A stretch of 40,072 bases of DNA from a virus. Positions 1 to 38,594 of the stretch are shown here, in pieces (position 1 is the first letter of the stretch; the number at the start of each line of letters is the position of its first letter). The translations under genes were made by a program, and so were the position numbers. The notes under the pieces are model-generated. The model ran no database searches. It worked only from the letters and a program-made list of their open reading frames with translations, and was not told the origin of the DNA. Where the stretch lies: the IMG/VR virus record IMGVR_UViG_3300038417_000606, positions 1 through 40,072 of that record. One strand, 5' to 3'.

Positions 1-333
1 TTATTTCCTTACCAAAATCTTCACGCCCATACTATCGGTTAGTTCGACTTCAATTAGAGTTGCAATCAACTGCTTCGCCTCCTCTTTCTTTTTCCGCCCT
101 TCAAGCCGCAGAGTGTTGACAAAATCGTTATATGTAACAAATTCCTCATCTTTCGGATCTGATATTCCGAGGCGGAGCATTTTTAACTCAAGCGATAATC
201 CAGAATTTGGTTCATCTGGATACCTTGCTTTAATCTTTTTAAAGGTATCAAGATCAATCTCGTCATCGCTTTTTATGTAACCGACAATGCGATATTCACC
301 GGTTTCTTGTTTTTCAAAAATATTTGTTCCCAT
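1..333 (-). CDS. Hypothetical protein downstream of the DGR reverse transcriptase
   Basis: This is a 110-residue soluble protein rich in Lys and Glu, with no signal peptide or membrane segment. I do not recognise a family. The start at 333 is chosen because GGAGAAG lies just upstream of that ATG. A longer frame reaching 396 has no comparable ribosome site and would overlap the reverse transcriptase more. Even so, the first 61 bases overlap the 3' end of the reverse transcriptase gene in another frame, so the two are probably translationally coupled. Its place directly after the retroelement could mean an accessory role, but nothing in the sequence shows this. The stop codon occupies the first three bases of the window, so the gene is complete. 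Confidence 0.6.
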   Translation of the reverse strand: MGTNIFEKQETGEYRIVGYIKSDDEIDLDTFKKIKARYPDEPNSGLSLELKMLRLGISDPKDEEFVTYNDFVNTLRLEGRKKKEEAKQLIATLIEVELTDSMGVKILVRK

Positions 334-1328
334 TTTTCTTCTCCAATAATGGTTTTTATTTTTTCTAGAAACACCTTTGATTCGCAATACTTGCATTGCC
401 CCAATAAACTCTGAAGTGAGTCATTAAAGCGGGCGTTCGGAACGTTCGCTTTTACAAACTTCCTGAATTTCCGGTAATTCTTACTCATCACTCTTTTGCG
501 CAATATTCTGTAACGCGCAAATTGGCGGAACCCAAGAAAATCTATTCCTTGGGATATGTTGAAGACCGCTGTTTTCTCGTTTAATTCAAGATGCAGCTTG
601 TTCAATGCCCCTTTTATTTCACGATGCCACGCCCAGAGTATTTTTTTATCGTTACCGACGATAACCATATCATCCATATAGCGCACATAGTGTTTTACGC
701 ACAATATCTCTTTTATAAAATGGTCGAGTCGGCTGAGATAAATATTAGCAAAAAGCTGCGATGTCAAATTTCCCACCGGAACTCCAGGATCGTCGGTGGA
801 GTTTATTATTATATCTAATAGGCCAAGCGTTTTCTTGCATCGTATCACTTTTCTGAGCTGTTGTTTCAAAACAGCATGGTCGATATTGTAGAAATATTTT
901 CTCACGTCCATTTTAAGACAGAAGACTTGTTTGCCCTTACCTAATTCGCTCGATATGAATTTTTCATTACGAACGACTCCAGCCAGGGTTCCTTTATTCT
1001 TGCGGCAAGCGAAGGAATCGCTAATAAATGTCCGTTCAAAAAGTGGTTCAATGATATTGCATATCGCCTGCTGAATAACCCTGTCTCGGAAGGGCAATGC
1101 AAGAATTAATCTTACCTTGGGATCATAAACATAGAACTCTTTGTATCTGCCCGGCTTGTAAACCTGATGCATTAAAATGTTATGCAGATCGATTAGGTTC
1201 TCTTCCAATCTTGAAGAAAACTCAAGCACTTCCTTCTTATAGCGCTTGTTCCTACGCGCTTTCAGGTAGGCAAGGTGAAGATTATCAAATGAACTTATTT
1301 TATCGTAAAGATTGTTGAACGACTTCAA
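273..1328 (-). CDS. DGR reverse transcriptase
   Basis: This 351-residue reverse transcriptase copies the template-repeat RNA into cDNA with errors at adenines, which then replaces the variable repeat of the target gene. The palm motifs are visible: motif A LKMDVRKYF (Asp141), the DGR-type motif VGNLTSQ at about 185-191 (other retroelement RTs usually have QGxxxSP here), and the catalytic YMDD at 217-220. Length matches DGR enzymes. There is no maturase, RNase H or nuclease domain, which argues against a group II intron RT. The start is a TTG at 1328 with GGGAG about 8 bases upstream; no ATG fits the conserved N-terminus. It follows the template repeat in the order target-Avd-TR-RT, the same as in Bordetella phage BPP-1. 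Confidence 0.93.
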   Translation of the reverse strand: MKSFNNLYDKISSFDNLHLAYLKARRNKRYKKEVLEFSSRLEENLIDLHNILMHQVYKPGRYKEFYVYDPKVRLILALPFRDRVIQQAICNIIEPLFERTFISDSFACRKNKGTLAGVVRNEKFISSELGKGKQVFCLKMDVRKYFYNIDHAVLKQQLRKVIRCKKTLGLLDIIINSTDDPGVPVGNLTSQLFANIYLSRLDHFIKEILCVKHYVRYMDDMVIVGNDKKILWAWHREIKGALNKLHLELNEKTAVFNISQGIDFLGFRQFARYRILRKRVMSKNYRKFRKFVKANVPNARFNDSLQSLLGQCKYCESKVFLEKIKTIIGEEKWEQIFLKNKKPVNIALSVT

Positions 1329-1441
1329 AAATTATCTCCCATACAGAATTATCTTGTAAAAGTTACTAACCGTATCAGAGTAAATATATTTATCCCGATA
1401 ATTTTTCGAGAAGGACAAGTCTCCTTTTGTTTTGTGCATTG

Positions 1442-1463
1442 CCTTGGATTCGTGAATCCAAGG
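1442..1463 (-). repeat. Perfect hairpin between template repeat and reverse transcriptase
   Basis: CCTTGGATTC and GAATCCAAGG form a perfect 10-base stem around a 2-base loop. A second hairpin, AGCTTTC-AC-GAAAGCT (about 1468-1483), lies directly beside it and runs into the edge of the template repeat. Both lie 3' of the template in the sense of transcription. In known DGRs the RNA around TR is structured and needed for cDNA priming, so these are candidates for that structure; the role is inferred. Confidence 0.6.
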
Positions 1464-1474
1464 ATCGAGCTTTC

Positions 1475-1588
1475 ACGAAAGCTAGCCGGAAACCAATATT
1501 CCAATTGACGTTCCCCCGTTCATTGTTCAGGTTCAGTGCGGAAACTCCGGCGTTAGCTACATTGTCGCAATTGCCGCCGCGAATCGGG
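1475..1588 (-). repeat. DGR template repeat (TR)
   Basis: This is a non-coding 114-base copy of the 3' end of the target gene at 1987-2100, in the same orientation. In the 108 bases from 1481, 23 positions differ from the variable repeat. Nineteen of them are template adenines on the minus (coding) strand, out of 27 adenines present, mostly A to G. Four differences are at other bases. If read in the target frame, the template is dense in AAT and AAC codons, the codons that give most amino-acid diversity under adenine mutagenesis. The RT-proximal end, identical in the GCTAGCCGGAAACC stretch, corresponds to the initiation-of-mutagenic-homing region. Confidence 0.95.
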
Positions 1589-1606
1589 CATTTAACAGAC
1601 TTTATC

Positions 1607-1939
1607 CTATTTAGTAGACTTAATCCATCCGCCTAGCATTTTGCCAATTTCTGATAGATTCGCTGCTAAAATTTCATATTGTTTTAATTTCAAAAATTGC
1701 AAATCCTTCGCAACCCTCAACTGGAATCTTAATATATCCAACTTGACGTCAGCTTCTATAAGAATCTTTCTTCGGTCTTGCAATTTATTGGCTGTTATAA
1801 ACAGCATCAGCATATCAAAGAACGTATTTTTAATGTCCGCCGCTAAAACAAACTTTTCTGATTTCGGGAAATTCTTGATTGCAATATGGAGATACAAAAA
1901 GCAATCGTATGATTTTTGAAATATTATTAGCTTCTCCAT
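1607..1939 (-). CDS. avd: Accessory variability determinant (Avd)
   Basis: This small 110-residue helical protein fits the Avd family, a barrel-forming four-helix protein that binds the DGR reverse transcriptase and template RNA and is needed for mutagenic retrohoming. The sequence is rich in Lys, Leu and Phe with four predicted helical blocks, for example EKLIIFQKSYDCFLYLHIAI near the N-terminus and a C-terminal stretch ending in LGGWIKSTK. The ATG at 1939 is preferred, with a GAGAG ribosome site; an upstream TTG in the variable repeat would add 17 unlikely residues. It sits between the target gene and the template repeat, the usual Avd position, which strongly supports the call. Confidence 0.88.
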   Translation of the reverse strand: MEKLIIFQKSYDCFLYLHIAIKNFPKSEKFVLAADIKNTFFDMLMLFITANKLQDRRKILIEADVKLDILRFQLRVAKDLQFLKLKQYEILAANLSEIGKMLGGWIKSTK

Positions 1940-1979
1940 TTTACTCTCTTTCAGAGATCCAGAAATCAGATACCAGATA

Positions 1980-3185
1980 CTAAAGCACAAAAGCTAGCCG
2001 GAAACCATCACTCCAATCGACGGACCCCCGCCCATCGCCCAGGTACAGCGCGGAAACCCCGGCGCTAGCTAAACCGCCGCGATCGCCGCCGCGATGCGGG
2101 ATACTTTCTATAGCGTTATTGTACCAGAAATAATCCCCGTTATAACCGGTTGTAAAGGGAAGCACTCCTAAAGATTTTAATAACGCTACACCAGCCGACG
2201 CACCGCTCACATCTGATTCAACTGTAATAGATTCAAATGTTTTACTCCCGCTTCCACTTGTCGCCGCTTTCGTAATATTACCATTTGAATAAACTTTTAA
2301 TGTGTCTGCCGTTCCAGGTGCAACTAATGTACCGTCTTCCAGAATTGCTTTCCATTCCGTACTGCCGACAAGCTGACTCTTAGTCGCGTCGGCGGCGTTG
2401 TTATTGACCAAAATATTAATCTCGCCATTAAGCAATCGCAAACCACCAACCCATTCCCAGACGTTCCCGGAAAGATCAAATACACCAGACGCGTCAAAAT
2501 TGTGGGATGTTTTTATCCCACCGCTGCCCGTAAGCCATCTTGCAGATTCTACCGCGACTCCGAAATTAGCCAATGTATAGCATCTGCCAACAATAGACAG
2601 ATCTCTATCATCTCTGCCGTAATTTGTGTTGCCATACGGCTGCGTGGCTCCTGCAACTGATTTTATTTGTAACGCCGCCCACTCCGCGTTTGTCATCAGA
2701 TGGAAACCCGCAATCGCACCGGCATTATTTGCTGCACAAAGAGCAAGTGCTGTATCAAAATTTACACTTGATTTTTGCTCTACATTTTTGCGAGATCCGG
2801 CTGTTACTCCGCTTGTATTATCAACTAAACCCGCAGCGGTTAATAGGCACGCTTGATATTTGGCGATAAAAATTTCTCTCTCAACTCCGCCGACCATAAA
2901 CGCTGGATGGATCAATGTTGAAGCAAAGCCATTTGTCGGATCCCAGTTGAATCGTTGCAACTTGACAAACTCGGAATAGACACCATTCTTATTCGCAATT
3001 GCAAAATTGTTCGGTAGTGAGTTGTGCGGTATAATTTGTTGATCGGATGCTTGGAATCCGTGGTTGATAAGCCATTGCTTGATATCGTTACTAATTGTAT
3101 GAACAGCGTTCCAATTCGATGGACGTACGAGTGTTGTATCTTCATCGTCAGCTTTCTCGCTAACAAAAGTATGTGTAATATCCAT
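1980..3185 (-). CDS. DGR target protein, formylglycine-enzyme/C-type-lectin fold, probable receptor-binding protein
   Basis: This 401-residue protein is the substrate of the retroelement. The N-terminus has a short motif of the type found on phage tail and fibre proteins (DITHTFVSEKADDEDTTLVRPSNWNAVH, about residues 2-29). The rest resembles the formylglycine-generating-enzyme/sulfatase-modifying fold used by many DGR targets: GFHLMTNAEWAAL (about 162-174), GRDD, and SGNVWEWVGG (about 240-249). The last 40 residues (from about PHRGGDRGG to GFRLAFVL) are encoded by the variable repeat and hold the diversified positions. GGAG precedes the ATG. It follows the tail-type gene at 3206. By analogy with BPP-1 Mtd it should sit on the virion and bind the host surface; the ligand is unknown. 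Confidence 0.92.
   Translation of the reverse strand: MDITHTFVSEKADDEDTTLVRPSNWNAVHTISNDIKQWLINHGFQASDQQIIPHNSLPNNFAIANKNGVYSEFVKLQRFNWDPTNGFASTLIHPAFMVGGVEREIFIAKYQACLLTAAGLVDNTSGVTAGSRKNVEQKSSVNFDTALALCAANNAGAIAGFHLMTNAEWAALQIKSVAGATQPYGNTNYGRDDRDLSIVGRCYTLANFGVAVESARWLTGSGGIKTSHNFDASGVFDLSGNVWEWVGGLRLLNGEINILVNNNAADATKSQLVGSTEWKAILEDGTLVAPGTADTLKVYSNGNITKAATSGSGSKTFESITVESDVSGASAGVALLKSLGVLPFTTGYNGDYFWYNNAIESIPHRGGDRGGLASAGVSALYLGDGRGSVDWSDGFRLAFVL
1987..2100 (-). repeat. DGR variable repeat (VR)
   Basis: This forms the 3' end of the target gene and aligns without gaps to the template repeat. Differences are concentrated at template adenines. Comparing codons, template residues I, N, C, D, N, V, N, N, N, N, E, N, N, N and I become H, D, R, G, G, L, S, Y, G, D, G, S, D, S and D: about 15 changed residues in a stretch of roughly 35. 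The conserved codons encode the framework residues such as GVSAL, DW and GFRLAF. The stop codon follows just beyond the repeat. Confidence 0.95.
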
Positions 3186-3205: not shown

Positions 3206-3622
3206 TTATGCACCTTGTTTCGGTAATGTATGAGTAAACGATGTTACGGATACTCTCGCACCTGCTTGAATTGCTACACTGTTAAGAATGAGATTTGCTG
3301 TTGCAGTTCCCGCTGATCCATCCCATAATTTTGTTGTACCATCTGATTTCAATAGTCTGAACCATGTTGCGGTTCCTGTATGATCTGCGCTTGAATCGTC
3401 GGTGATTGCTCTTGCTGTGATAACTCCGGCCACTGCTGCATCAAATGCAGTTGCATTCATTCTCAGTTCCGCTAGTAAGACTTGATTTGTTATTGCTGTG
3501 TCTGCTGTTGCGGGTTGAGTGCCGTCATAAATTCGTAAATAGCCACTATTAGCTAATGGTGCTAGTGCGTCAAGCTGTGTGTTTGCCGCAAGATCGCTGA
3601 GTTGTGTGTTGAGTACTGACAT
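3206..3622 (-). CDS. Phage virion-associated hypothetical protein
   Basis: This 138-residue protein, rich in Ala, Thr and Ser, has the pattern of a phage protein family often found next to tail-fibre genes: LRIYDGTQPATADTAIT, LLAELRMNATAF and GTATWFRLLKSDGTT. It has no membrane segment and no catalytic motif. GAGG lies 8 or so bases upstream of the ATG at 3622. It precedes the DGR target gene by about 20 bases and is probably co-transcribed, so a structural role at the tail tip or as an adaptor is likely but not proven. I do not know a biochemical function for the family. Confidence 0.75.
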   Translation of the reverse strand: MSVLNTQLSDLAANTQLDALAPLANSGYLRIYDGTQPATADTAITNQVLLAELRMNATAFDAAVAGVITARAITDDSSADHTGTATWFRLLKSDGTTKLWDGSAGTATANLILNSVAIQAGARVSVTSFTHTLPKQGA

Positions 3623-3654: not shown

Positions 3655-6600
3655 TTATTTTTTCTCTGCTGTGATTTCCTGGATAAGTCCTTCTAAGTTC
3701 CTTTGTATCTTGAATACCCATTTCGTAGGTACTGATTGTTTTTTCTCCTCTTCAATCTTTTTGATTTCTGATATTATTTCATTCTTTGTTTCATTTGCGT
3801 TTTCTTTTTGCTCTGCTAGGACTTGTTGCACTATTTCTTTAACTATTTCAGTGTTTTGGATTTTAGGCGGTTCAGGTTTCTTTGCTTCTATGCTTTTCAT
3901 AAGTGGTTCCTCGGAAGCGGGTTCTTCTGCTTTTACTTTATGGTTTCCGCTTTCAATCCATTTCTTGAATTCTTCGATAGTCATTTCTGCCATGCTATCG
4001 ATTCTCTTGTCTGCATCGTCGGAATAATTGGACTTGTACGCTTCGGTAGCTTCCTTTTTGTTTGACATCAGCATGAGAATCTTATGTTCGTCGAATTTCT
4101 TTGTGTCCGGGAATACTTGGTTGACGATATAGACGTTCTTTGCGTCCTTATCGTCGCCAAGGAATACATCAAGGTGATCCTTATCTTTTCCTGTAGTGCC
4201 ATTAATATATCCATAGTCATGCTTGAGTTTGCATTCCCAAGGAGTTCCGTTGTGATCTTTACCTCTTCGAATGCTTCCCTTTGGATTTTCTATACTGATA
4301 GTTAATCCATAGAGAGATACCTTACCCTTGGCATAGTTTCCGGCTTTCTTCTCTGCTTCGGTAGGATTAGTATCAGTATCTTTCCGGGCTTGGATTAGTT
4401 GTTTGAACCATTCACGCGCATTGGAGAAGATAGATTTTGTTATATCTGCGGTCTCAGGATCGAATGTCCCTTTGTTGCCGATTGCGGATTTGATTTGAGA
4501 TGGATTGAATATCGCCCATGTTCCACCTTCCATCTTTCCATGAATTGAATCGTATCCCATGTTTTTTGCATATTTCGATATATCCCCAAAATATTCATTG
4601 AAAGCCTTCGATATCAAGATATCATTATCTTTAGCTTTCGATAGTTCTTCTTGCCATCCTTGCCAATAGCCTTTCCACCTTGAATCTTCGATTTCCCCTT
4701 TACCATTTTTAGAACGTTCTTCATTTAATGCCTTGCGTATTTTTTCCTCTGGAAGTATAGGAACATCCGATATCTCAAGCGGGTTCTTTGCTGTAAGATA
4801 GGTTTCATAAACCTGCTTCTTACCTTTCTCTTTGTCGTTTAATCTTCGGGCTGTAAAGTTCTCTGCTGTTGACTTTGATTCTGTAAAGTATATTGCTTTT
4901 CCCGCCCATCCTGAATCTCGTTTTCCTGTCTCGCTGAATTCTGTAAATCCTCCAGTTGGTGTCCCATGATATACTACTTTTGGCTTTCCATCTTTGTCAA
5001 CTACTTTGCTATCACCAAACCACTTTTTGAATTCCGGCGTTGAAGTCTGGTCTTTAGGGGTAGAACCCGCCTCACCTGTGCCGGATGAAACGGGTTCCGA
5101 TTTGACACTGCCTGATTCAGTGCCGGGGGATTTCTCTCTAAGCCTTGATGTTGATACCGATGAACCTGGCTCCTTCTCATACGCTTCTAATGCTTCACGA
5201 TAGAACTGGCCTTTAACGGCAACATCTAAGGCTTCTTGATTCTTTTTCTCATTCATCAGCTTTCTAAACTCTATCTTTATTTCCCCTTGGAGTCTCTTTA
5301 GTTCTTCAGCTTGTTCTGGAGTTGCCTTGTCTCCGAAGGCTATTGCATCTTGTGTGTTTTTGAATTCGGGAATAGTAGCCTCACCGCTTCCTTGTGGTTT
5401 CGATTCTAAAGCTGGATTTTGGCTACTCTGATTCCCTTTACGCTGTTCGCGTTCTTCTTTTGCATAGGATATTTTTCGGATTAGCTCCAATTTACTATCT
5501 GCATATTGATATTCTTTTTTCTCTTCACCTTGTTCAAGATCGGCTTCGAGTGCTGCAACAAGTCTATCCCACTTGGCTTCGTGTTGCTTGACTAAATTCT
5601 TTTGATGATCGGCTTCGTGTGTGAGTTCGGCTATTCGTACTGCCTTGACTTCTCCCTTATCGCTTATGATAGTTGCTATATTATCGCCGAACCTTCCAAG
5701 TGAATACTTTTTGCTATCATGAATTACGGTATCACCTTCCTGCCAGTCATGATGCTTCGGAAGTGGTTTGCCTTTCGCATCGCCCTTGAATTCCTGTCCC
5801 TTTTCATCCTCATAGTAATAAACCCATTCTCCGCCCTTGCCTCTCTCTCTACGTTTGTATTTATGGTTCGGTTTCTCCTGACCAAGTGATTTCCATGAGA
5901 GTTGAGCGGATTGCTGTTTCGGTTTTGGTGTTCCGAACATATCCATTTGAGACTTGAAGAATCGGAAGATTGATTTTCGAATACTTGATTCCGTTACCTT
6001 GCTTTCCCAGTCTGTATATCGATTATCAAGTTCGCCCTTTGTCATAAACCTTGGTTGATTGTAAAGTCTATCTCCCTTATATCTCACAGCATATTCATCA
6101 TGTCCCCATTTGCTCTTTTCAATTGACGTTACTTCTGCCTTTTCGCATGTTACCTGCTGAATCCCAAGTTCCGCCTTCATTCTCATGAGATTCTTTTTAA
6201 GTTCCGCCCGGTTGCTATAAATCGAAAGAACATATTGATCTCTTTCTTTCTCCTCCGTCTTGTACTCGAGATTGCGTTTGATTGCAATGCGCTTTTTATT
6301 TACCGCTTCATAGAGTTTGAAATTATGAGAAGAAAATCCGCCCTTATGATATTTATTCCAGAACTGTTTCTCCAGTTCACTCGTTTCATTAATCAATGCA
6401 ATTCCAAGTTCCAGCTTCTTTGATCGAATAAGTTCTTCACCGGACTTTGATTCTCCGAAGTTTGTTACGCACTCGCTTCCTACTGATAGATACCATTCCT
6501 TTGTATCGTTTTTGATAGGATAAGCCATTTTGATTTTATGGCCGCAAAGACCGCAACACATTGAATCAGGATCGGAACCGGACTTGAATATCGTAGGTGC

Positions 6601-9600
6601 TTCTTTGAAGTTCTCTATTCCCTTACGGTCGAATTCCGGCATGATATGTCCTTCTCCATCGTCGGTCATGCTTTTTATCGGAACCGCACTCCATTCGTCT
6701 CTATTGCTTTTCATTTGGTAGAGATTAAATCCTACATGGTCATCATAACTACCTTTTCGGATCCCATTCTTCTTGCGGACATCTTCCCATGCCGTTGCTT
6801 CTTCTTGCTCTTTGGTCTTTCCGGTGTCGGGCTTCGCTTCTTCCTTCTTCTCCGCTTCCAGCTTCAGCTTCTTGAATGGAATATGAGAGGTGGGCTTGGA
6901 TTCGGCTTCTTTCATCAATCGTTCTATATTTGATCGGAACTTCTCATTCCAATAATCATAGAATTTTTCTTGTGCTGATTGTTTTTCTGAATCATATTTA
7001 TAATTAGTCTCGAAAGGGTCTGAATACTTTCTTAATAATGCTCCTCTGTAATTTGCCGGCAATACCTTCACTGCATCTTCTGGATCGCCCGTTAGAAATC
7101 CTCTTGCACTTAACTCTTCCATTGCCTTCAATGTCTGTGGTTTCTTCTTTTGCTCTGCTTCATCGCGTTCTCTACGTTTCGCATATTTATCCTCTTTAGG
7201 TTCCGGTTTCTTTTCTGTCTTCATCGCTTCAATCTCTGCCTGCGTATGCCAGCGGGGTTTCCCTATCGTTGTTTCGAGTAAGGTATATTCGATTCCGTTC
7301 TCTGTCTTCTTATCTCCGACATGATGCTCTTCCTGAACACCAAATAGATTGCCTTGATCGACTTTGAACTTCTTGATTTCGGATTGGTATTTGTTGGTTA
7401 GGGATTTAAAGAGTGAGCGTACAGGATTGATTATACCATTCTCTTTGATTAACTTTATTTGGCCTTCTGATTGCCTCGCCGCCGCCCGTGAAGAGGAAGG
7501 AGCTTCAGAAGAATTCAATCCATTATATCCAGTTCTCAAGTCGGTGGAATTGCTTTTGGCGGGAGTGGACTTTTTGAACTGGTTATTTATTTCTTCGTGA
7601 TACTTCTGTATTCTTGATTTGAAGAAGTACCCGAGCAATGACTTTCTGAGTTTGTGATGTTCAAGGTCGAATTCGAATTCCTTTGCAACATCCTTCATTT
7701 TCTTATATGCGTTGAATGCGCTGTAGGTTTGTTTCCCGGCTTCTTTTTCTTCAGCGGTCATTTCCTCTGCATTTTCTTCTCGGTAGGGTTTGTTCTCCAA
7801 GAATACTCTTTCCGCTATCTTGATAATATCTTCCTGTTGCTGTGCGGTTTGCTGTTCCGGTGACAACTGCGCTGCAAATATATCCGCTCCCTGTTCGCCT
7901 TTTTCTTTCAGAGTCTTCATTGCGTCTGCAAAGCGCTTCATCTTCAAGGCGAATAGTTCACGCGCTTGGTCTTTCTTATCCGGATCCCTGGGAGTCATCG
8001 CTTGATTGTACGCTATCATGCCGATAACGTTTAGCGGGTTCCTGAAGATGTTCCCTGATTTCTTATCGCCGAATTCAATTGCTTCCTGTCTCATACGCGA
8101 GATTAAGCTATCTGGGTTCTTCCGGCCTTCTTCTCCGGTCTCAAGGAATGGTATGTTTCCGCTCTTGTCGACCTTCAATAAGTTTTTAGTTGCGCTACTG
8201 AGTGAATCATATTGCTCAATGGAGTTCTTAAGGAATTTCTGGATATCTCCATTTGGCGGCACTGCTCCATCAGCGATATCCTTTTGATTGTCCGCAATGA
8301 TTGGAGCGGTTACTTTTACAAGTTCATGCGTGTCTTCACCTTTCCGGCTTACGGTCCGGATGAAATCCTTGTCAAGCTGTGCAAGCAAGGCAGTGTTCAC
8401 GACTTTGGCTTGTTCCGCCGGCCTATATTGAACTGCTATTGGATCATATCCACTGAGCTTGAGTATCTTCTGGTAAACCTGGGGATTGTTTCGAATGAAG
8501 TTCCCTACGTTCTTTTCTGTGATCGACCGTCGACCGATTCCCGTTAGATTCAGGTTTAATCCGAATTTCAATCGCTGTGCATTCTGGAAACTTCGTGCTT
8601 CTTCAACCTCTGTCATCGGCAAGGCTGAAGACTTCTGGCCGAATGCTCCTAACTTTCGCGCATCTTCATAAGTATGGACCGGAGACATAACGCGTACTAG
8701 CATCATATCATCGGTTACTTTGTCGGTAGGGATTCCAAGTTCTTTCGCCTTTTGCAGCATCATTCCGAAATACTTCTCTTTGCCTGCACCCTCCATGCCT
8801 TGAACTGCACCTGCCCGGCCATTGCCCTGAACGATGTAAGTCTTTCCACCTTTCGAATATGCTACCGGCGCTCCTCGAGTTGCATCCTTGTTATCTTCTA
8901 CAAGTTCCTCGTTAGGTTCTGATGCGATCTTACGCATTTGGATATTGCTTGCTTCATCCTTGTCACGTTCACGGGCTTGTAGTTCGGTAGGATGTTCTTT
9001 GTTAGCTTCGCCGGTCATACTATGAGATGCAATGATATCCTTTTTCGGAACGAAGGCATATTGGACTTGATATGATTCATTCTTGCTATCTCGAATTATC
9101 TTTACATTGTCATCGACGATAGCATCTTCTTTTTCGTTCGGTAATTCTGCTGGTTCATCCCAGCCAAATTTAGCGTTCTCATCTTTCTCCGTTTGCTTTG
9201 ATCTCAGGAAATCTTTACGCCTTGACATCAAAATATCTTTAGCAGTCTCAATATACTCATTCATCTCTCGGGGCTTTGGTGGTTCAATAATAACTCCAGT
9301 CTTTGCGAAATCATTCAAAGCTGTTACTTCTGATGCTCTCTTGACATCCTCTACTCGCATTCTTTCGGCCAGGGATAGAACATTAGCCTTCCATTCATCT
9401 GGATTGGCATAGCTTCCGGCAAGCTGTTCATCCATATCCGCTCCGCCATCCTTCAGCCATTGATCAAATACATCTTTATATTTTTCGGGTTCTAATCCTT
9501 CAACCTTCTTCGCATAGGGAACATTTTCATTACCATGAAGAACTCGAGCTTTTACGGTCTCCATGTCCTGGACTTGTTCGTTTTTCGCATCTAGCTTTTT

Positions 9601-11346
9601 ACGCGCTTTTTGAACTTCGACCTTCACAGATTCCAGTTTTTTGCTTAATTCAGGCTGGTCCCGTTTGGCATCCTTTTGAGCAACTTGGAATTGATGTTTA
9701 TTTTCATCGACTATTCCGGCTTCATCTCCGTGCTTATAGAATGCAATACCATTCCGGATCTTCCCTAGCTTCACGTCATCAATGACAGCTCCCTCTCCAT
9801 TCTTGATCGACTTCCATACTTCATCACGGATAATCTTTACTGTGCCGGGCTTGAATAAATCTTCCTGAGTCAATCCTTCATTCAACTCCAATGAGAACTC
9901 TTCACCCTGAGCATTCTTAATCCTTGCATTTCCTTCTGCATCAAGAATTATCTGACCTCTGAATTGATCGATATCATTATTTTTTATGGTTTGTTTATTG
10001 CCGAACTGATCTCGAATATCAATATTTCCATCGTTCATTCCTACGATATTATACTGCTTGCCCTGATATGCAACATCGAATCCCTGGCCTTCGAAGTAAT
10101 AGTCATAGTCTTTCTTTTCCGGTCTCCATACCTTTTCAGCAGTTCCGCTGCGCAAGTTCCCAAGTGATGAAACGAACGATATGTCTTTTACAAACCTGAA
10201 TGGCGTTGCAATATCTCGAGTCCATCCATCTTTGGATTGCTCTTCCTGGAATTTCTGGTACTCGGGTAGAGATTCCTGATTCTTGATTATTGCCTGCTGT
10301 TCATCATAGTATTTATTTCGTGGGGTCTCAGGATGTAAATCATGCTCAAGAAGTTTTTGAGACTTTCTATTCTCCATTTCTTTATTCGCTGTTTGTTCTG
10401 GAGTTTCATTGGCAGCCCTAGGCTCAGTGCTTCGTGCAGGCTCATGAGATTCCTGATCGTATTCACTTGCTCTAATCGTTGTAGTTTTCCCATCCGGCTT
10501 TTTGACTGCGACAATATCATTACCATAATCGATAACCTTTGCTTTTTCTCCTCTGACAAATATCTCTTTGCCAATTCTGAAAAGGTTGCTGAATGTTCCC
10601 TTATTCTTCGTTCCTTCTTCATATTTCTTTCTTTCCTTACCTTTGCCCTCTTCTATCTGGGCTTTCTGTTTGGCTTCTTGGAGTTTAACCTTTTCGTCAA
10701 CACTTAACCATCTAAGCATACCGCTCTTTGCTCGAGTCAATTGACGTGTATCGTTAAGACCGAACCGCCTGATTTCACCTTCTGTATGTTCCTGGGCTGG
10801 AACAATCTGGGCTTTAAGACCGGCGAATGAGACATTCCACTTTGGTGCTCCCTGCTTGACCGCTGGCGCTGCGCCTACTAGCGACTTGTAAAGTCTTCCT
10901 CTATACTCGAGTGCTTGAAGCTCCTGGTCCACAAGTTCCCTATCGCTCTCGATCGGAAGAAGTGATTTCTTGAAGTATGGTTTCTTACCTTCTCCATTTT
11001 CGCATATTGCTATTTCGTCACCTAGTTCAATTACGATTCCCTTGTTGGTTTGAATTCCCTTCTTCAACCAGTTCGGGCTTACTTCCTGGATTTCTAGCTT
11101 CTGATTATACCGGTAGGTAATATTCGACTTCTGGAAATAGTAATCGTTTCCCATTCCCGTCTGAAGTGTGCCGGCATATTCAAGCTCTTGCTTATCTGAG
11201 AGAAGATATTCCTGGCCTTGATGGGTAAAGACTTCAAATTCTTTTGCGATAATAGGTATTTGATTGCTTGCGGTGGGTTCTTTTGAAAGGATTGATCCCC
11301 TAGGAATCATTCCATTCAAAGACTTTGCGAAGTAGAGAGCATTCAT
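3655..11346 (-). CDS. Giant phage polyvalent protein with ParB-like, ADP-ribosyltransferase and pyrophosphatase-like domains
   Basis: This is a single 2563-residue frame. Polyvalent proteins combine many effector and DNA-related domains and are thought to be packaged and injected with the genome. Visible parts, approximate residues: small SH3/KOW-like segments in the N-terminal third (for example GKEIFVRGEKAKVIDYGND, 260-300); a DdrB-like ParB domain near 745-900 with GNGRAGAVQGM; a Cys4 site CCGLCGHK...GSEC near 1595; another KOW-like segment near 1880 (WQEGDTVIHDSKKYSLGRFG); an ADP-ribosyltransferase-type domain near 2120-2310 (KVVYHGTPTGGF, AIYFTES, IFNPSQIKSA); an inorganic-pyrophosphatase-like polyvalent domain near 2340-2460 (DHLDVFLGDD); and a C-terminal coiled coil rich in Glu and Lys. 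It is unbroken and highly charged. Catalytic activity of each domain is inferred from family resemblance only. Confidence 0.85.
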   Translation of the reverse strand: MNALYFAKSLNGMIPRGSILSKEPTASNQIPIIAKEFEVFTHQGQEYLLSDKQELEYAGTLQTGMGNDYYFQKSNITYRYNQKLEIQEVSPNWLKKGIQTNKGIVIELGDEIAICENGEGKKPYFKKSLLPIESDRELVDQELQALEYRGRLYKSLVGAAPAVKQGAPKWNVSFAGLKAQIVPAQEHTEGEIRRFGLNDTRQLTRAKSGMLRWLSVDEKVKLQEAKQKAQIEEGKGKERKKYEEGTKNKGTFSNLFRIGKEIFVRGEKAKVIDYGNDIVAVKKPDGKTTTIRASEYDQESHEPARSTEPRAANETPEQTANKEMENRKSQKLLEHDLHPETPRNKYYDEQQAIIKNQESLPEYQKFQEEQSKDGWTRDIATPFRFVKDISFVSSLGNLRSGTAEKVWRPEKKDYDYYFEGQGFDVAYQGKQYNIVGMNDGNIDIRDQFGNKQTIKNNDIDQFRGQIILDAEGNARIKNAQGEEFSLELNEGLTQEDLFKPGTVKIIRDEVWKSIKNGEGAVIDDVKLGKIRNGIAFYKHGDEAGIVDENKHQFQVAQKDAKRDQPELSKKLESVKVEVQKARKKLDAKNEQVQDMETVKARVLHGNENVPYAKKVEGLEPEKYKDVFDQWLKDGGADMDEQLAGSYANPDEWKANVLSLAERMRVEDVKRASEVTALNDFAKTGVIIEPPKPREMNEYIETAKDILMSRRKDFLRSKQTEKDENAKFGWDEPAELPNEKEDAIVDDNVKIIRDSKNESYQVQYAFVPKKDIIASHSMTGEANKEHPTELQARERDKDEASNIQMRKIASEPNEELVEDNKDATRGAPVAYSKGGKTYIVQGNGRAGAVQGMEGAGKEKYFGMMLQKAKELGIPTDKVTDDMMLVRVMSPVHTYEDARKLGAFGQKSSALPMTEVEEARSFQNAQRLKFGLNLNLTGIGRRSITEKNVGNFIRNNPQVYQKILKLSGYDPIAVQYRPAEQAKVVNTALLAQLDKDFIRTVSRKGEDTHELVKVTAPIIADNQKDIADGAVPPNGDIQKFLKNSIEQYDSLSSATKNLLKVDKSGNIPFLETGEEGRKNPDSLISRMRQEAIEFGDKKSGNIFRNPLNVIGMIAYNQAMTPRDPDKKDQARELFALKMKRFADAMKTLKEKGEQGADIFAAQLSPEQQTAQQQEDIIKIAERVFLENKPYREENAEEMTAEEKEAGKQTYSAFNAYKKMKDVAKEFEFDLEHHKLRKSLLGYFFKSRIQKYHEEINNQFKKSTPAKSNSTDLRTGYNGLNSSEAPSSSRAAARQSEGQIKLIKENGIINPVRSLFKSLTNKYQSEIKKFKVDQGNLFGVQEEHHVGDKKTENGIEYTLLETTIGKPRWHTQAEIEAMKTEKKPEPKEDKYAKRRERDEAEQKKKPQTLKAMEELSARGFLTGDPEDAVKVLPANYRGALLRKYSDPFETNYKYDSEKQSAQEKFYDYWNEKFRSNIERLMKEAESKPTSHIPFKKLKLEAEKKEEAKPDTGKTKEQEEATAWEDVRKKNGIRKGSYDDHVGFNLYQMKSNRDEWSAVPIKSMTDDGEGHIMPEFDRKGIENFKEAPTIFKSGSDPDSMCCGLCGHKIKMAYPIKNDTKEWYLSVGSECVTNFGESKSGEELIRSKKLELGIALINETSELEKQFWNKYHKGGFSSHNFKLYEAVNKKRIAIKRNLEYKTEEKERDQYVLSIYSNRAELKKNLMRMKAELGIQQVTCEKAEVTSIEKSKWGHDEYAVRYKGDRLYNQPRFMTKGELDNRYTDWESKVTESSIRKSIFRFFKSQMDMFGTPKPKQQSAQLSWKSLGQEKPNHKYKRRERGKGGEWVYYYEDEKGQEFKGDAKGKPLPKHHDWQEGDTVIHDSKKYSLGRFGDNIATIISDKGEVKAVRIAELTHEADHQKNLVKQHEAKWDRLVAALEADLEQGEEKKEYQYADSKLELIRKISYAKEEREQRKGNQSSQNPALESKPQGSGEATIPEFKNTQDAIAFGDKATPEQAEELKRLQGEIKIEFRKLMNEKKNQEALDVAVKGQFYREALEAYEKEPGSSVSTSRLREKSPGTESGSVKSEPVSSGTGEAGSTPKDQTSTPEFKKWFGDSKVVDKDGKPKVVYHGTPTGGFTEFSETGKRDSGWAGKAIYFTESKSTAENFTARRLNDKEKGKKQVYETYLTAKNPLEISDVPILPEEKIRKALNEERSKNGKGEIEDSRWKGYWQGWQEELSKAKDNDILISKAFNEYFGDISKYAKNMGYDSIHGKMEGGTWAIFNPSQIKSAIGNKGTFDPETADITKSIFSNAREWFKQLIQARKDTDTNPTEAEKKAGNYAKGKVSLYGLTISIENPKGSIRRGKDHNGTPWECKLKHDYGYINGTTGKDKDHLDVFLGDDKDAKNVYIVNQVFPDTKKFDEHKILMLMSNKKEATEAYKSNYSDDADKRIDSMAEMTIEEFKKWIESGNHKVKAEEPASEEPLMKSIEAKKPEPPKIQNTEIVKEIVQQVLAEQKENANETKNEIISEIKKIEEEKKQSVPTKWVFKIQRNLEGLIQEITAEKK

Positions 11347-19797: not shown

Positions 19798-20745
19798 TTA
19801 TGTTCCTGTCTTTCTAAATTCATAAAACTTCGAAATAGATTTTTCCGGTTGTACAATTTCTGCCATAGGATCAGGTTGCTGATTGATGAGATAATTACTT
19901 ACATGGGTGTAGATTTCTGTTGTCTTTACATTCGCATGACCGAGCATTTCCTGAATTATTCTTATATCAACCCTTTGCTCTAATAAATATGTTGCGTATG
20001 AGTGCCTAAAAACATGGGGATGAAAATGTATTGATTGAATGGGATAATTTATTTTTTGTAATTCTTCTCGCAAATAATCATCCAATTTTGTAGTAATCCT
20101 ATAAATCGTATCTGGACTGATGTAGTGACCTACTTTTTCGCCAGGGAATAAATATTTAGAGAATCTTTTTCTCTCTGGTAGCGATTTCCAATGTTCATAT
20201 AAAAGCGGTATGATTGAATCTCTCAAAGGAACAATCTTATCTTTGCCACCCTTCCCTCTGCGAATAGTAATAATTTTACGTTCCTTGCAGATATTGCCCC
20301 TTTCAATCTTGCACAGTTCGGTTAATCTGATACCCGTAGAATAAAATACTCCTATGACCGCCTTTTCAGTCCAGTTAGTAATTCTATTAAATGCTAATTT
20401 GATGTATTCATGCGGGATAACTTCGGGTAACTTTCTTTTGACCTTTGGTTTTTTGATCCCGTCAAATTTGTGAGGTTGTCGCGGCGGAACTTCTAAATAA
20501 TAAAAACGCATAGCCCAAAAACATTGCAATTCTTTTGAAATACCCCTTTCATGGCCTACCCATGCAAGGAAAGTGATAATATCTTCCTTGTTTATATTTT
20601 GTGGGTGATCCCGTAAATGTTCCGATTGTGAGAAATACCAACATGCTGTCTTCCAACCTGCTCGATAGGAATCATAAGTTTGTGGTGATAAATTCCTTTG
20701 CTCAATCAATGTCTTTAATTCTATGAAAATGCTCTCAGACTTCAT
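19798..20745 (-). CDS. int: Tyrosine site-specific recombinase (integrase)
   Basis: This 315-residue enzyme cuts and joins DNA through a 3'-phosphotyrosine. The N-terminal SAM-like core-binding domain (about 1-100: SPQTYDSYRAGWKTACWYF) is followed by the catalytic domain with Arg in STGIRLTELC, Lys in RRGKGGKDK, HxxR in HPHVFRHSYATYLLE, the second His in EMLGHANVKTT, and the nucleophile Tyr in EIYTHV. All six catalytic positions appear intact. It lacks the extra helix typical of integron integrases. AAGGTG precedes the ATG at 20745. Lying in the middle of the structural genes rather than at an edge, it could be the phage integrase or belong to the inserted block on its right. An attachment site was not found. 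Confidence 0.9.
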   Translation of the reverse strand: MKSESIFIELKTLIEQRNLSPQTYDSYRAGWKTACWYFSQSEHLRDHPQNINKEDIITFLAWVGHERGISKELQCFWAMRFYYLEVPPRQPHKFDGIKKPKVKRKLPEVIPHEYIKLAFNRITNWTEKAVIGVFYSTGIRLTELCKIERGNICKERKIITIRRGKGGKDKIVPLRDSIIPLLYEHWKSLPERKRFSKYLFPGEKVGHYISPDTIYRITTKLDDYLREELQKINYPIQSIHFHPHVFRHSYATYLLEQRVDIRIIQEMLGHANVKTTEIYTHVSNYLINQQPDPMAEIVQPEKSISKFYEFRKTGT

Positions 20746-20797
20746 TCCCAATCACCTTGATTTTATTTGATGATTTTATTGTGCGTTGTAATAATTG

Positions 20798-28833: not shown

Positions 28834-29995
28834 ATTCTTATTTTAAGTTAAAAGATTTTCAGACAACGCACGGCCTTAAACCAGCCCACGTTTGCGCCTG
28901 ATAGGACTGCCCATCCTGTTTTATGTTTATTGCTGCATTCTCATCACGGTCTAAAACTAACCCGCAATGAGGACAACAATGAATTCGATTTGATAATTTC
29001 TTCGGAACTCTTTCACCGCATGATGAACATCGTTGTGAAGTTCCGTTGGGATTAACTTTCACTATTTCCCTACCAGCTTCTTCCGCTTTGTAAGAAAGTA
29101 TTTGAAAAAATAATCCCCATGAACAATCCGAAATACTTCTTGCTAAATTATGGTTCCTTGCCATATTACTAATTTTTAAATCTTCTAAGAATATCCTTTT
29201 GTTGTTTTGAATATAATGATTGGCGGCCTTGTGAAGAAAGTCTTTACGCTGATTAGTAATGTGTTCATGCAACTTCGCTACCTGCAATCTTGCTTTTTGT
29301 CTCCGATGTGAACCTTTATGCCTTCTGGAAAGTGTGCGTTGTTTTACTCTCAATCTCTTTGTTGATTGCTTTAAAAACTTTGGATTCTCTATAATTCTTC
29401 CATCTGAGTCTACTGCAAAAGATTTTATTCCTACATCAATTCCGATTTCCTTTGTGGTCTCAGGATAAATACGAAAGGGGACTTCGTCACAGCAGAAAGA
29501 AACAAACCATTTGCCGGTAGATGTTCTACGAATGGTTATAGTTTTAATCTTTCCTTCAATCTGACGAGAGAGAAACAATTTCAACCTTCCGATCTTCGCA
29601 AGATGCAAATATCGTCCTTCAAGTTTCCAACCTGCTTGCGTGAGCGTGAATGAGTCGTATCTATCGGTAGATTTGAAGCGAGGATATCCAGTTTTGCCAA
29701 TTTTGAGTCTGCGGAAAAATGCTTTAAATGCTTTATCAAGACGTTGAAGAACATCTTGCAAACATTGACTTCCAATTTGTTTAAAAATAGGAAACGCTTC
29801 TTTAAATTCTGGCAATTGATTTTGTTGATCATAAAGAGAAATAGGGTTTTTGCTCTGTTTATAAACCATAATCCTTTGTTCAAGGGCAAGATTATACAAT
29901 ATACGACATTGCTCAATCCATTGAATGCAAATTGTTTCAGCGGATTTGGAGAGTTCAATACGATATTGGAAGGTTCGTATCATTGTTTGATATAA
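28834..29995 (-). mobile_element. Solo TnpB element (IS200/IS605-like), approximate limits
   Basis: The strip between the recU-like stop (29996) and the recU-like fragment (28833) contains only tnpB, with 12 bases before its ATG and about 25 bases after its stop. No tnpA transposase is present, so it would need one in trans. The right edge reads AATGTCAAAG, after which recU-like homology resumes; a guide RNA (omega/reRNA) usually spans the tnpB 3' end and this edge. Limits are inferred from the flanking homology. Confidence 0.65.
28859..29983 (-). CDS. tnpB: TnpB RNA-guided nuclease
   Basis: This 374-residue protein is a TnpB, the RNA-guided nuclease ancestor of Cas12. The RuvC catalytic parts are intact: Asp183 in GIDVGIKSF, Glu267 in FLEDLKISNM, and Asp345/Asp347 in LDRDENAAINI. 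A zinc ribbon has Cys319, Cys322, Cys337 and Cys340 (CSSCGERVPKKL...CCPHC). The N-terminal domain begins RTFQYRIEL. Length matches active members. It starts 13 bases after the recU-like gene with no clear ribosome site, so it may be read by coupling to that gene. It would cleave DNA next to a short motif, guided by RNA from its own 3' end; this has not been shown here. Confidence 0.92.
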   Translation of the reverse strand: MIRTFQYRIELSKSAETICIQWIEQCRILYNLALEQRIMVYKQSKNPISLYDQQNQLPEFKEAFPIFKQIGSQCLQDVLQRLDKAFKAFFRRLKIGKTGYPRFKSTDRYDSFTLTQAGWKLEGRYLHLAKIGRLKLFLSRQIEGKIKTITIRRTSTGKWFVSFCCDEVPFRIYPETTKEIGIDVGIKSFAVDSDGRIIENPKFLKQSTKRLRVKQRTLSRRHKGSHRRQKARLQVAKLHEHITNQRKDFLHKAANHYIQNNKRIFLEDLKISNMARNHNLARSISDCSWGLFFQILSYKAEEAGREIVKVNPNGTSQRCSSCGERVPKKLSNRIHCCPHCGLVLDRDENAAINIKQDGQSYQAQTWAGLRPCVV

Positions 29996-38501: not shown

Positions 38502-38574
38502 ACCGAAGTAACTCAATTGGATAGAGTAAGCGTCCGCTAAACGTTAAATCTGGGTTCGAATCCCAGCTTCGGTA
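38502..38574 (+). tRNA. tRNA-like gene, anticodon GCT, unusual body
   Basis: A cloverleaf is visible: a 7-pair acceptor (ACCGAAG with CTTCGGT), 4-pair D stem (ACTC/GAGT), 5-pair anticodon stem (AGCGT/ACGTT), variable loop of only 4 bases, and a 5-pair T stem (CTGGG/CCCAG) around TTCGAAT. The loop is CCGCTAA, so the anticodon reads GCT (Ser). Position 33 is C rather than the near-universal T, and serine tRNAs usually have a long variable arm. The D arm looks like that of arginine tRNAs. No CCA is encoded. It may be a decayed tRNA or a phage tRNA of unusual identity. Confidence 0.65.
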
Positions 38575-38594
38575 CTATAAGCCATTTGAGTTTC

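What the first reader, a model, noticed from the sequence alone, without database searches (positions are those of the whole stretch)
1475..3185. Complete diversity-generating retroelement targeting a probable phage receptor-binding protein
Target, Avd, template repeat and reverse transcriptase lie in the order seen in BPP-1. The 114-base repeats align without gaps and, in the 108-base core, 19 of 23 differences are at template adenines on the coding strand. The template has many AAY codons in frame. The target has an FGE/C-type-lectin pattern and lies after tail-type genes, so the phage probably changes its receptor by mutagenic retrohoming. The combination with a large polyvalent-protein phage is not one I can place in a known genus.
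Basis: partly seen in the sequence, partly recalled or inferred. Interest (0 to 1): 0.85.

Follow-up and report, generated by a model that had tools for sequence, protein, structure and literature searches.

The report
Phage DGR diversifying a tail-module lectin
This uncultivated phage carries a complete, standard machine that rewrites one end of a probable host-binding protein by error-prone copying of a template; it is a well-supported new example of a known kind, in an otherwise poorly known phage.

Summary
TR and VR differ at 24 of 115 positions, 19 at template adenines (hypergeometric P about 3e-11). The RT falls inside the DGR clade, next to a Bacteroidota prophage RT. The target's predicted fold matches Thermus aquaticus DGR variable protein TaqVP (Foldseek E 1e-34). 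The spacer matches Rfam RT-14 and shows strong covariation across 32 DGR spacers. In the closest relative (L162) the same target-avd-TR-RT-orf1 block sits in a tail module, just before the tape measure gene, so a receptor-binding role is likely but not shown. 'After tail-type genes' is only partly supported inside the window. TerL, portal and minor-head genes have no close relative in the scans made. It is a new member of a known kind. Less expected: Rfam RT-14 appears to be a DGR spacer RNA, and a 67%-identical target exists without any DGR cassette.

The parts
273..1328 (-). DGR reverse transcriptase, 351 aa from a TTG start; PVGNLTSQ motif 4 and YMDD
   Evidence: PF00078 E 8e-21, phrog_1423 E 2e-122; best solved match BPP-1 bRT 8ub7 E 1e-57; inside DGR clade
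1329..1482 (-). Structured spacer RNA between TR and RT; Rfam RT-14 match at 1335-1481
   Evidence: 50.6 bits, gathering 48.1; own covariance model, covariation and position in relatives
1474..1588 (-). Template repeat (TR), 115 bases, nine in-frame AAY codons
1474..1494 (-). Probable IMH* (3' end of TR), identical to the VR end except one C/T
   Evidence: the same C (TR) / T (VR) difference in L162, L003 and L006
1607..1936 (-). avd, accessory variability determinant, 109 aa
   Evidence: PF22296 E 5e-29, NF033474 117 bits against cut-off 80; matches BPP-1 Avd 4dwl and 8ub7 chain B
1980..3185 (-). Target protein, 401 aa, TaqVP-like FGE-type C-type lectin fold, VR at its C-terminus
   Evidence: phrog_2889 E 8e-75; 5vf4 profile E 4e-126; model pLDDT 87.5; Foldseek to 5vf4 E 1.4e-34
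1986..2100 (-). Variable repeat (VR), 38 codons at the end of the target
1986..2006 (-). Probable IMH (3' end of VR)
1..333 (-). orf1, 110 aa, next gene after the DGR; conserved neighbour, probable tail assembly protein
   Evidence: 54% identical to the L162 gene that precedes the tape measure region
3206..3622 (-). Small virion structural protein directly upstream of the target
   Evidence: phrog_3758 E 1.5e-29; homologues lie after minor tail genes and before or near the endolysin in mycobacteriophages Charlie and Fowlmouth
3655..11346 (-). Large polyvalent protein, 2563 aa, with ddrB-ParB, ADP-ribosyltransferase and inorganic pyrophosphatase domains; context only
   Evidence: PF18763, PF18760, PF18823

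Best explanation
This is a complete phage diversity-generating retroelement. Proposed mechanism: a transcript across avd, TR and the spacer is bound by RT and Avd through the folded spacer RNA; the RT self-primes in the spacer, copies the TR with errors opposite adenines, and the mutated cDNA replaces the VR at the end of the target gene, with copying set by the IMH end of the VR. The changed residues sit in the ligand-binding face of a C-type-lectin domain on a virion protein of the tail module, so the phage population can try new host receptors. Shown here: repeats, adenine bias, RT and Avd identity, spacer structure, target fold. Inferred: expression, current activity, place in the virion and receptor binding.
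For: Adenine-centred TR/VR differences. RT in the DGR clade, sister to L162 with support 100/94, and apart from the QGxxxSP group (99/97). Avd above NCBIfam cut-off. Spacer RNA with 29 of 31 pairs showing compensatory change over 30 distinct sequences; covariation score 0.697 against 0.223 in shuffles, and at most 0.154 when partners are slid; every locus hit checked lies directly before the RT and one TR-length after avd. BPP-1 has its own Rfam family (Phage_DGR) at the same place. Target fold equals TaqVP. Relatives keep the block and the adenine bias. A related DGR is active in nature: L016 and L017 share TR and the 500 bases upstream of the VR exactly, but the VR differs at 12 sites, 10 at TR adenines. 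L162 places the block in a tail module.
Against: No second strain of this phage was found, so activity of this copy is untested. Four of the 24 differences are outside both TR adenines and the IMH position, two of them T to A beside a changed A. No major capsid, tail tube or tape measure gene was recognised in the window, so the tail assignment leans on relatives.
Confidence: 0.93

Rival explanations
1. A genuine but inactive DGR: the cassette diversified the target in the past and the present VR is fixed.
For: Five differences are not at template adenines, which suggests some divergence since the last homing. L083 shows that a close target can persist with no RT, TR or spacer found in its contig.
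Against: RT motifs, Avd, spacer structure and all nine AAY codons are intact; the template still cannot produce stops.
Confidence: 0.15
2. The target is a virion or secreted lectin that does not bind the host receptor, for example a capsid decoration that sticks to other surfaces.
For: In the window the nearest recognised structural genes are head genes (portal, minor head); the target's first 32 residues match a protein encoded in the structural region of phage ctvy9321, a few genes after its major capsid gene.
Against: L162 and L083 place the target after tail fibre genes or within the tail region; L003 carries it as the end of a 999-residue protein; viral DGR targets of clades 1, 4 and 6 are mostly tail proteins (PMC8144416).
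Confidence: 0.15
3. Not a DGR: the RT is a group II intron or retron type enzyme and the repeats are ordinary duplications.
For: NCBIfam lists a group II intron RT model, but at 130 bits against a cut-off of 300.
Against: Tree, motif 4, Avd, spacer RNA and adenine bias all agree on a DGR.
Confidence: 0.01

Closest known systems
BPP-1 (Rauchvirus) DGR: mtd-avd-TR-brt
   Same: Same gene order on one strand, single target and TR, FGE-type lectin target with C-terminal VR, Avd, and a spacer RNA between TR and RT.
   Different: Target is TaqVP-like, not Mtd-like; spacer matches Rfam RT-14 rather than Phage_DGR; the next gene after the RT leads towards a tape measure gene in the relative, not towards lysis genes.
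TaqVP, Thermus aquaticus DGR variable protein (PDB 5vf4; PMC6328139)
   Same: Fold over nearly the whole target, TM 0.78-0.83, 32% identity.
   Different: Phage-encoded here, with an N-terminal stretch of about 30-55 residues modelled at low confidence, whose first 32 residues match phage structural-region proteins.
L162, prophage region in Bacteroidetes MAG FK3.bin26
   Same: Target 64%, Avd 82%, RT 70%, orf1 55% identical, same order, TR/VR with 11 of 12 differences at adenines.
   Different: Target fused to a tail-fibre-like N-terminus; none of the other window genes matched in the 13 kb held.
IMG/VR contigs L003-L006 and L084
   Same: Same target-avd-TR-spacer-RT block with adenine bias.
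   Different: No match to the large polyvalent protein or the small structural gene upstream within the fetched flanks.

Membership tests
Diversity-generating retroelement | RT of the DGR clade, [ILV]GxxxSQ motif 4 in place of QGxxxSP | tested here: met
   PVGNLTSQ, YMDD; clade placement
Diversity-generating retroelement | TR/VR pair with at least 75% of mismatches at TR adenines | tested here: met
   19 of 24, 79%; threshold from PMC8144416
Diversity-generating retroelement | TR outside the genes, VR at the 3' end of a target gene | tested here: met
   TR between avd and RT; VR ends just before the target stop
Diversity-generating retroelement | Accessory protein Avd | tested here: met
   PF22296, NF033474
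Diversity-generating retroelement | Structured RNA between TR and RT that recruits RT-Avd | tested here: met
   Structure, covariation and position shown; recruitment itself known from BPP-1 only (PMC12875486)
Diversity-generating retroelement | Target with C-type lectin fold at the VR | tested here: met
Diversity-generating retroelement | Mutagenic homing takes place | not testable with these tools
   No reads and no second strain; shown by sequence only for the related pair L016/L017
Phage receptor-binding protein | Located in the tail and needed for adsorption | tested here: inconclusive
   Synteny with tail modules in relatives; no tail gene certain inside the window
Rfam Phage_DGR (RF03022) | Covariance model match | tested here: not met
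   The only match in the spacer is RT-14, whereas BPP-1 matches Phage_DGR at 104.7 bits
Rfam RT-14 (RF02921) | Covariance model match at or above gathering score | tested here: met
   50.6 bits against 48.1; four close relatives also match between TR and RT

The most novel reading that the evidence does not exclude
The DGR block (avd-TR-spacer RNA-RT) moves in and out of the gap between a TaqVP-like target and orf1 as one unit, and Rfam's RT-14 RNAs are the guide and priming RNA of a large DGR group, distinct at family level from the BPP-1 spacer.
Probability: 0.4. Interest if true: 0.5.

Novelty: new member of a known kind. Interest (0 to 1): 0.36.

Why it matters
It adds a complete, well-resolved DGR in a probable Bacteroidota-linked phage lineage with few known relatives, and gives a large comparative set for the DGR spacer RNA: 31 base pairs, 29 with compensatory change. 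If RT-14 is the DGR spacer, an Rfam family gains a function, and DGRs can be found by RNA model. The target relative without a cassette (L083) offers a natural comparison of the same lectin with and without diversification.

Tried and rejected
Scans of IMG/VR for TerL, portal and the minor head gene found no relatives. Exact 18- and 24-base patterns from the repeat end and the RT found no second strain. Literature on RT-14 could not be found or was not held. The group II intron label for the RT was rejected as far below cut-off. Promoter-like and terminator-like sites around the cassette are within about one standard deviation of shuffles and carry no weight. No TR, RT or spacer was found elsewhere in the L083 contig.

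Full report
Observation. TR 1474-1588 and VR 1986-2100, both on the minus strand, align over 115 columns without gaps with 24 differences. Nineteen of these are at template adenines: 15 to G, 2 to C, 2 to T. With 27 adenines among 115 bases the chance of 19 or more is 2.6e-11. The five others are two T to A next to a changed adenine, one T to C, one G to T and one C to T. The last lies in the 3' end shared by both repeats, and the same C in TR and T in VR is seen in L162, L003 and L006, so it is best read as the IMH/IMH* difference. All nine AAY codons of the template are changed in the VR; no adenine substitution can give a stop; the template allows about 1e13 protein variants.

Proteins. The RT (273-1328) has RVT_1 at 8e-21 and the phage RT family phrog_1423 at 2e-122. 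Its best solved relative is the BPP-1 DGR RT in 8ub7, E 1e-57, against 9e-17 for the best group II intron RT. It has PVGNLTSQ and YMDD. In a tree of 49 RTs, including 10 with the QGxxxSP motif as outgroup, the window RT is inside the clade that holds BPP-1 Brt and the RTs with verified TR/VR pairs, next to L162 from a Bacteroidetes MAG (support 100/94); the outgroup is split off at 99/97. Avd (1607-1936) passes its NCBIfam and Pfam cut-offs. The target (1980-3185) is only weakly FGE-like by Pfam, but its profile matches 5vf4 at 4e-126. The AlphaFold model (pLDDT 87.5) matches the same structure, Thermus aquaticus variable protein TaqVP, at Foldseek E 1.4e-34, TM 0.78-0.83. [quoted passage not shown]

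Spacer RNA. Rfam's RT-14 matches 1335-1481 on the minus strand, between TR and RT, and matches in the same gap in L003, L004, L005, L162 and L115. BPP-1 has a different Rfam family, Phage_DGR, in its own TR-RT gap. A model built from seven spacers found 32 matches in 99 sources, 1.47 Mb. In all 28 other loci and the window the match ends within about 50 bases of the RT start, and in all but L107 it begins 123-159 bases after avd, the room taken by the TR; nothing matched elsewhere (L107 has three copies in tandem). On these, 84% of pair cells are standard pairs against 57% in shuffles, and the covariation score is 0.70 against 0.22 in shuffles and at most 0.15 when partners are slid. The alignment was fitted to the structure and so leans towards it, but the unfitted seven-sequence alignment already had compensatory change in 17 of 31 pairs. 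In BPP-1 the spacer recruits RT-Avd and primes cDNA synthesis (PMC12875486); the same role here is inference.

Neighbourhood. In L162 the order is fibre-like gene, target, avd, TR, RT, orf1 (54% identical to the window's orf1), a 111-residue gene, tape measure. In L083 a 67%-identical target is followed after about 20 bases by an orf1 homologue, and the 37,399-base contig has no RT, TR or spacer. So the cassette appears to be gained or lost as one block; the direction cannot be told, and the contig may be incomplete. In the window itself, upstream of the target are a small virion protein whose homologues follow minor tail genes in mycobacteriophages, the large polyvalent protein, a weak SPP1 gp7-like minor head protein, a portal and TerL. 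The first 32 residues of the target match structural-region proteins of other phages, which fits a virion-attachment motif; this is inference.

Activity. No second strain was found, so activity of this copy is untested. A related DGR pair, L016 and L017, with identical TR and identical 500 bases upstream of the VR, differs at 12 VR sites, 10 at TR adenines, which is recent homing in nature. L003 and L006 differ at 21 VR positions, 15 of them where both TRs have A, while their TRs differ at 7.

Verdict. A complete DGR of the standard phage kind, with a TaqVP-like target in a probable tail module. Membership is met on every DGR feature that could be tested. It is a new member of a known kind. 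The features above the ordinary are the link of RT-14 to DGR spacers, the cassette-free relative, and the poorly related head genes of the phage. I could not check whether the RT-14 link has been published.

Noticed in passing
L107:11780-12670: Three tandem TR-plus-spacer units, about 304 bases apart, between avd and RT in a related phage; units 2 and 3 share a template in which many adenines of unit 1 are replaced, as if mutated copies had entered the TR locus.
   Followed up: partly
L083:9971-11440: TaqVP-like target 67% identical to the window's, with no RT, TR or spacer in the contig.
   Followed up: yes
window 28859-29983, -: TnpB-like gene (OrfB_IS605, Cas12f1-like TNB) with no TnpA recognised nearby.
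   Followed up: no
window 3655-11346, -: 2563-residue polyvalent protein with ParB-like, ADP-ribosyltransferase and pyrophosphatase domains; its homologues in other phages cover under 10% of its length in the best listed hits.
   Followed up: partly
window 38502-38575, +: tRNA-Ser (GCT) near the right end.
   Followed up: no
window 19798-20751, -: Tyrosine recombinase between packaging-type genes, which suggests a temperate phage.
   Followed up: no
window 1986-2100: Both ATT codons of the template became CAT and GAT in the VR, T to A beside a changed A; ATT or ATC is conserved at these sites in relatives' templates.
   Followed up: partly
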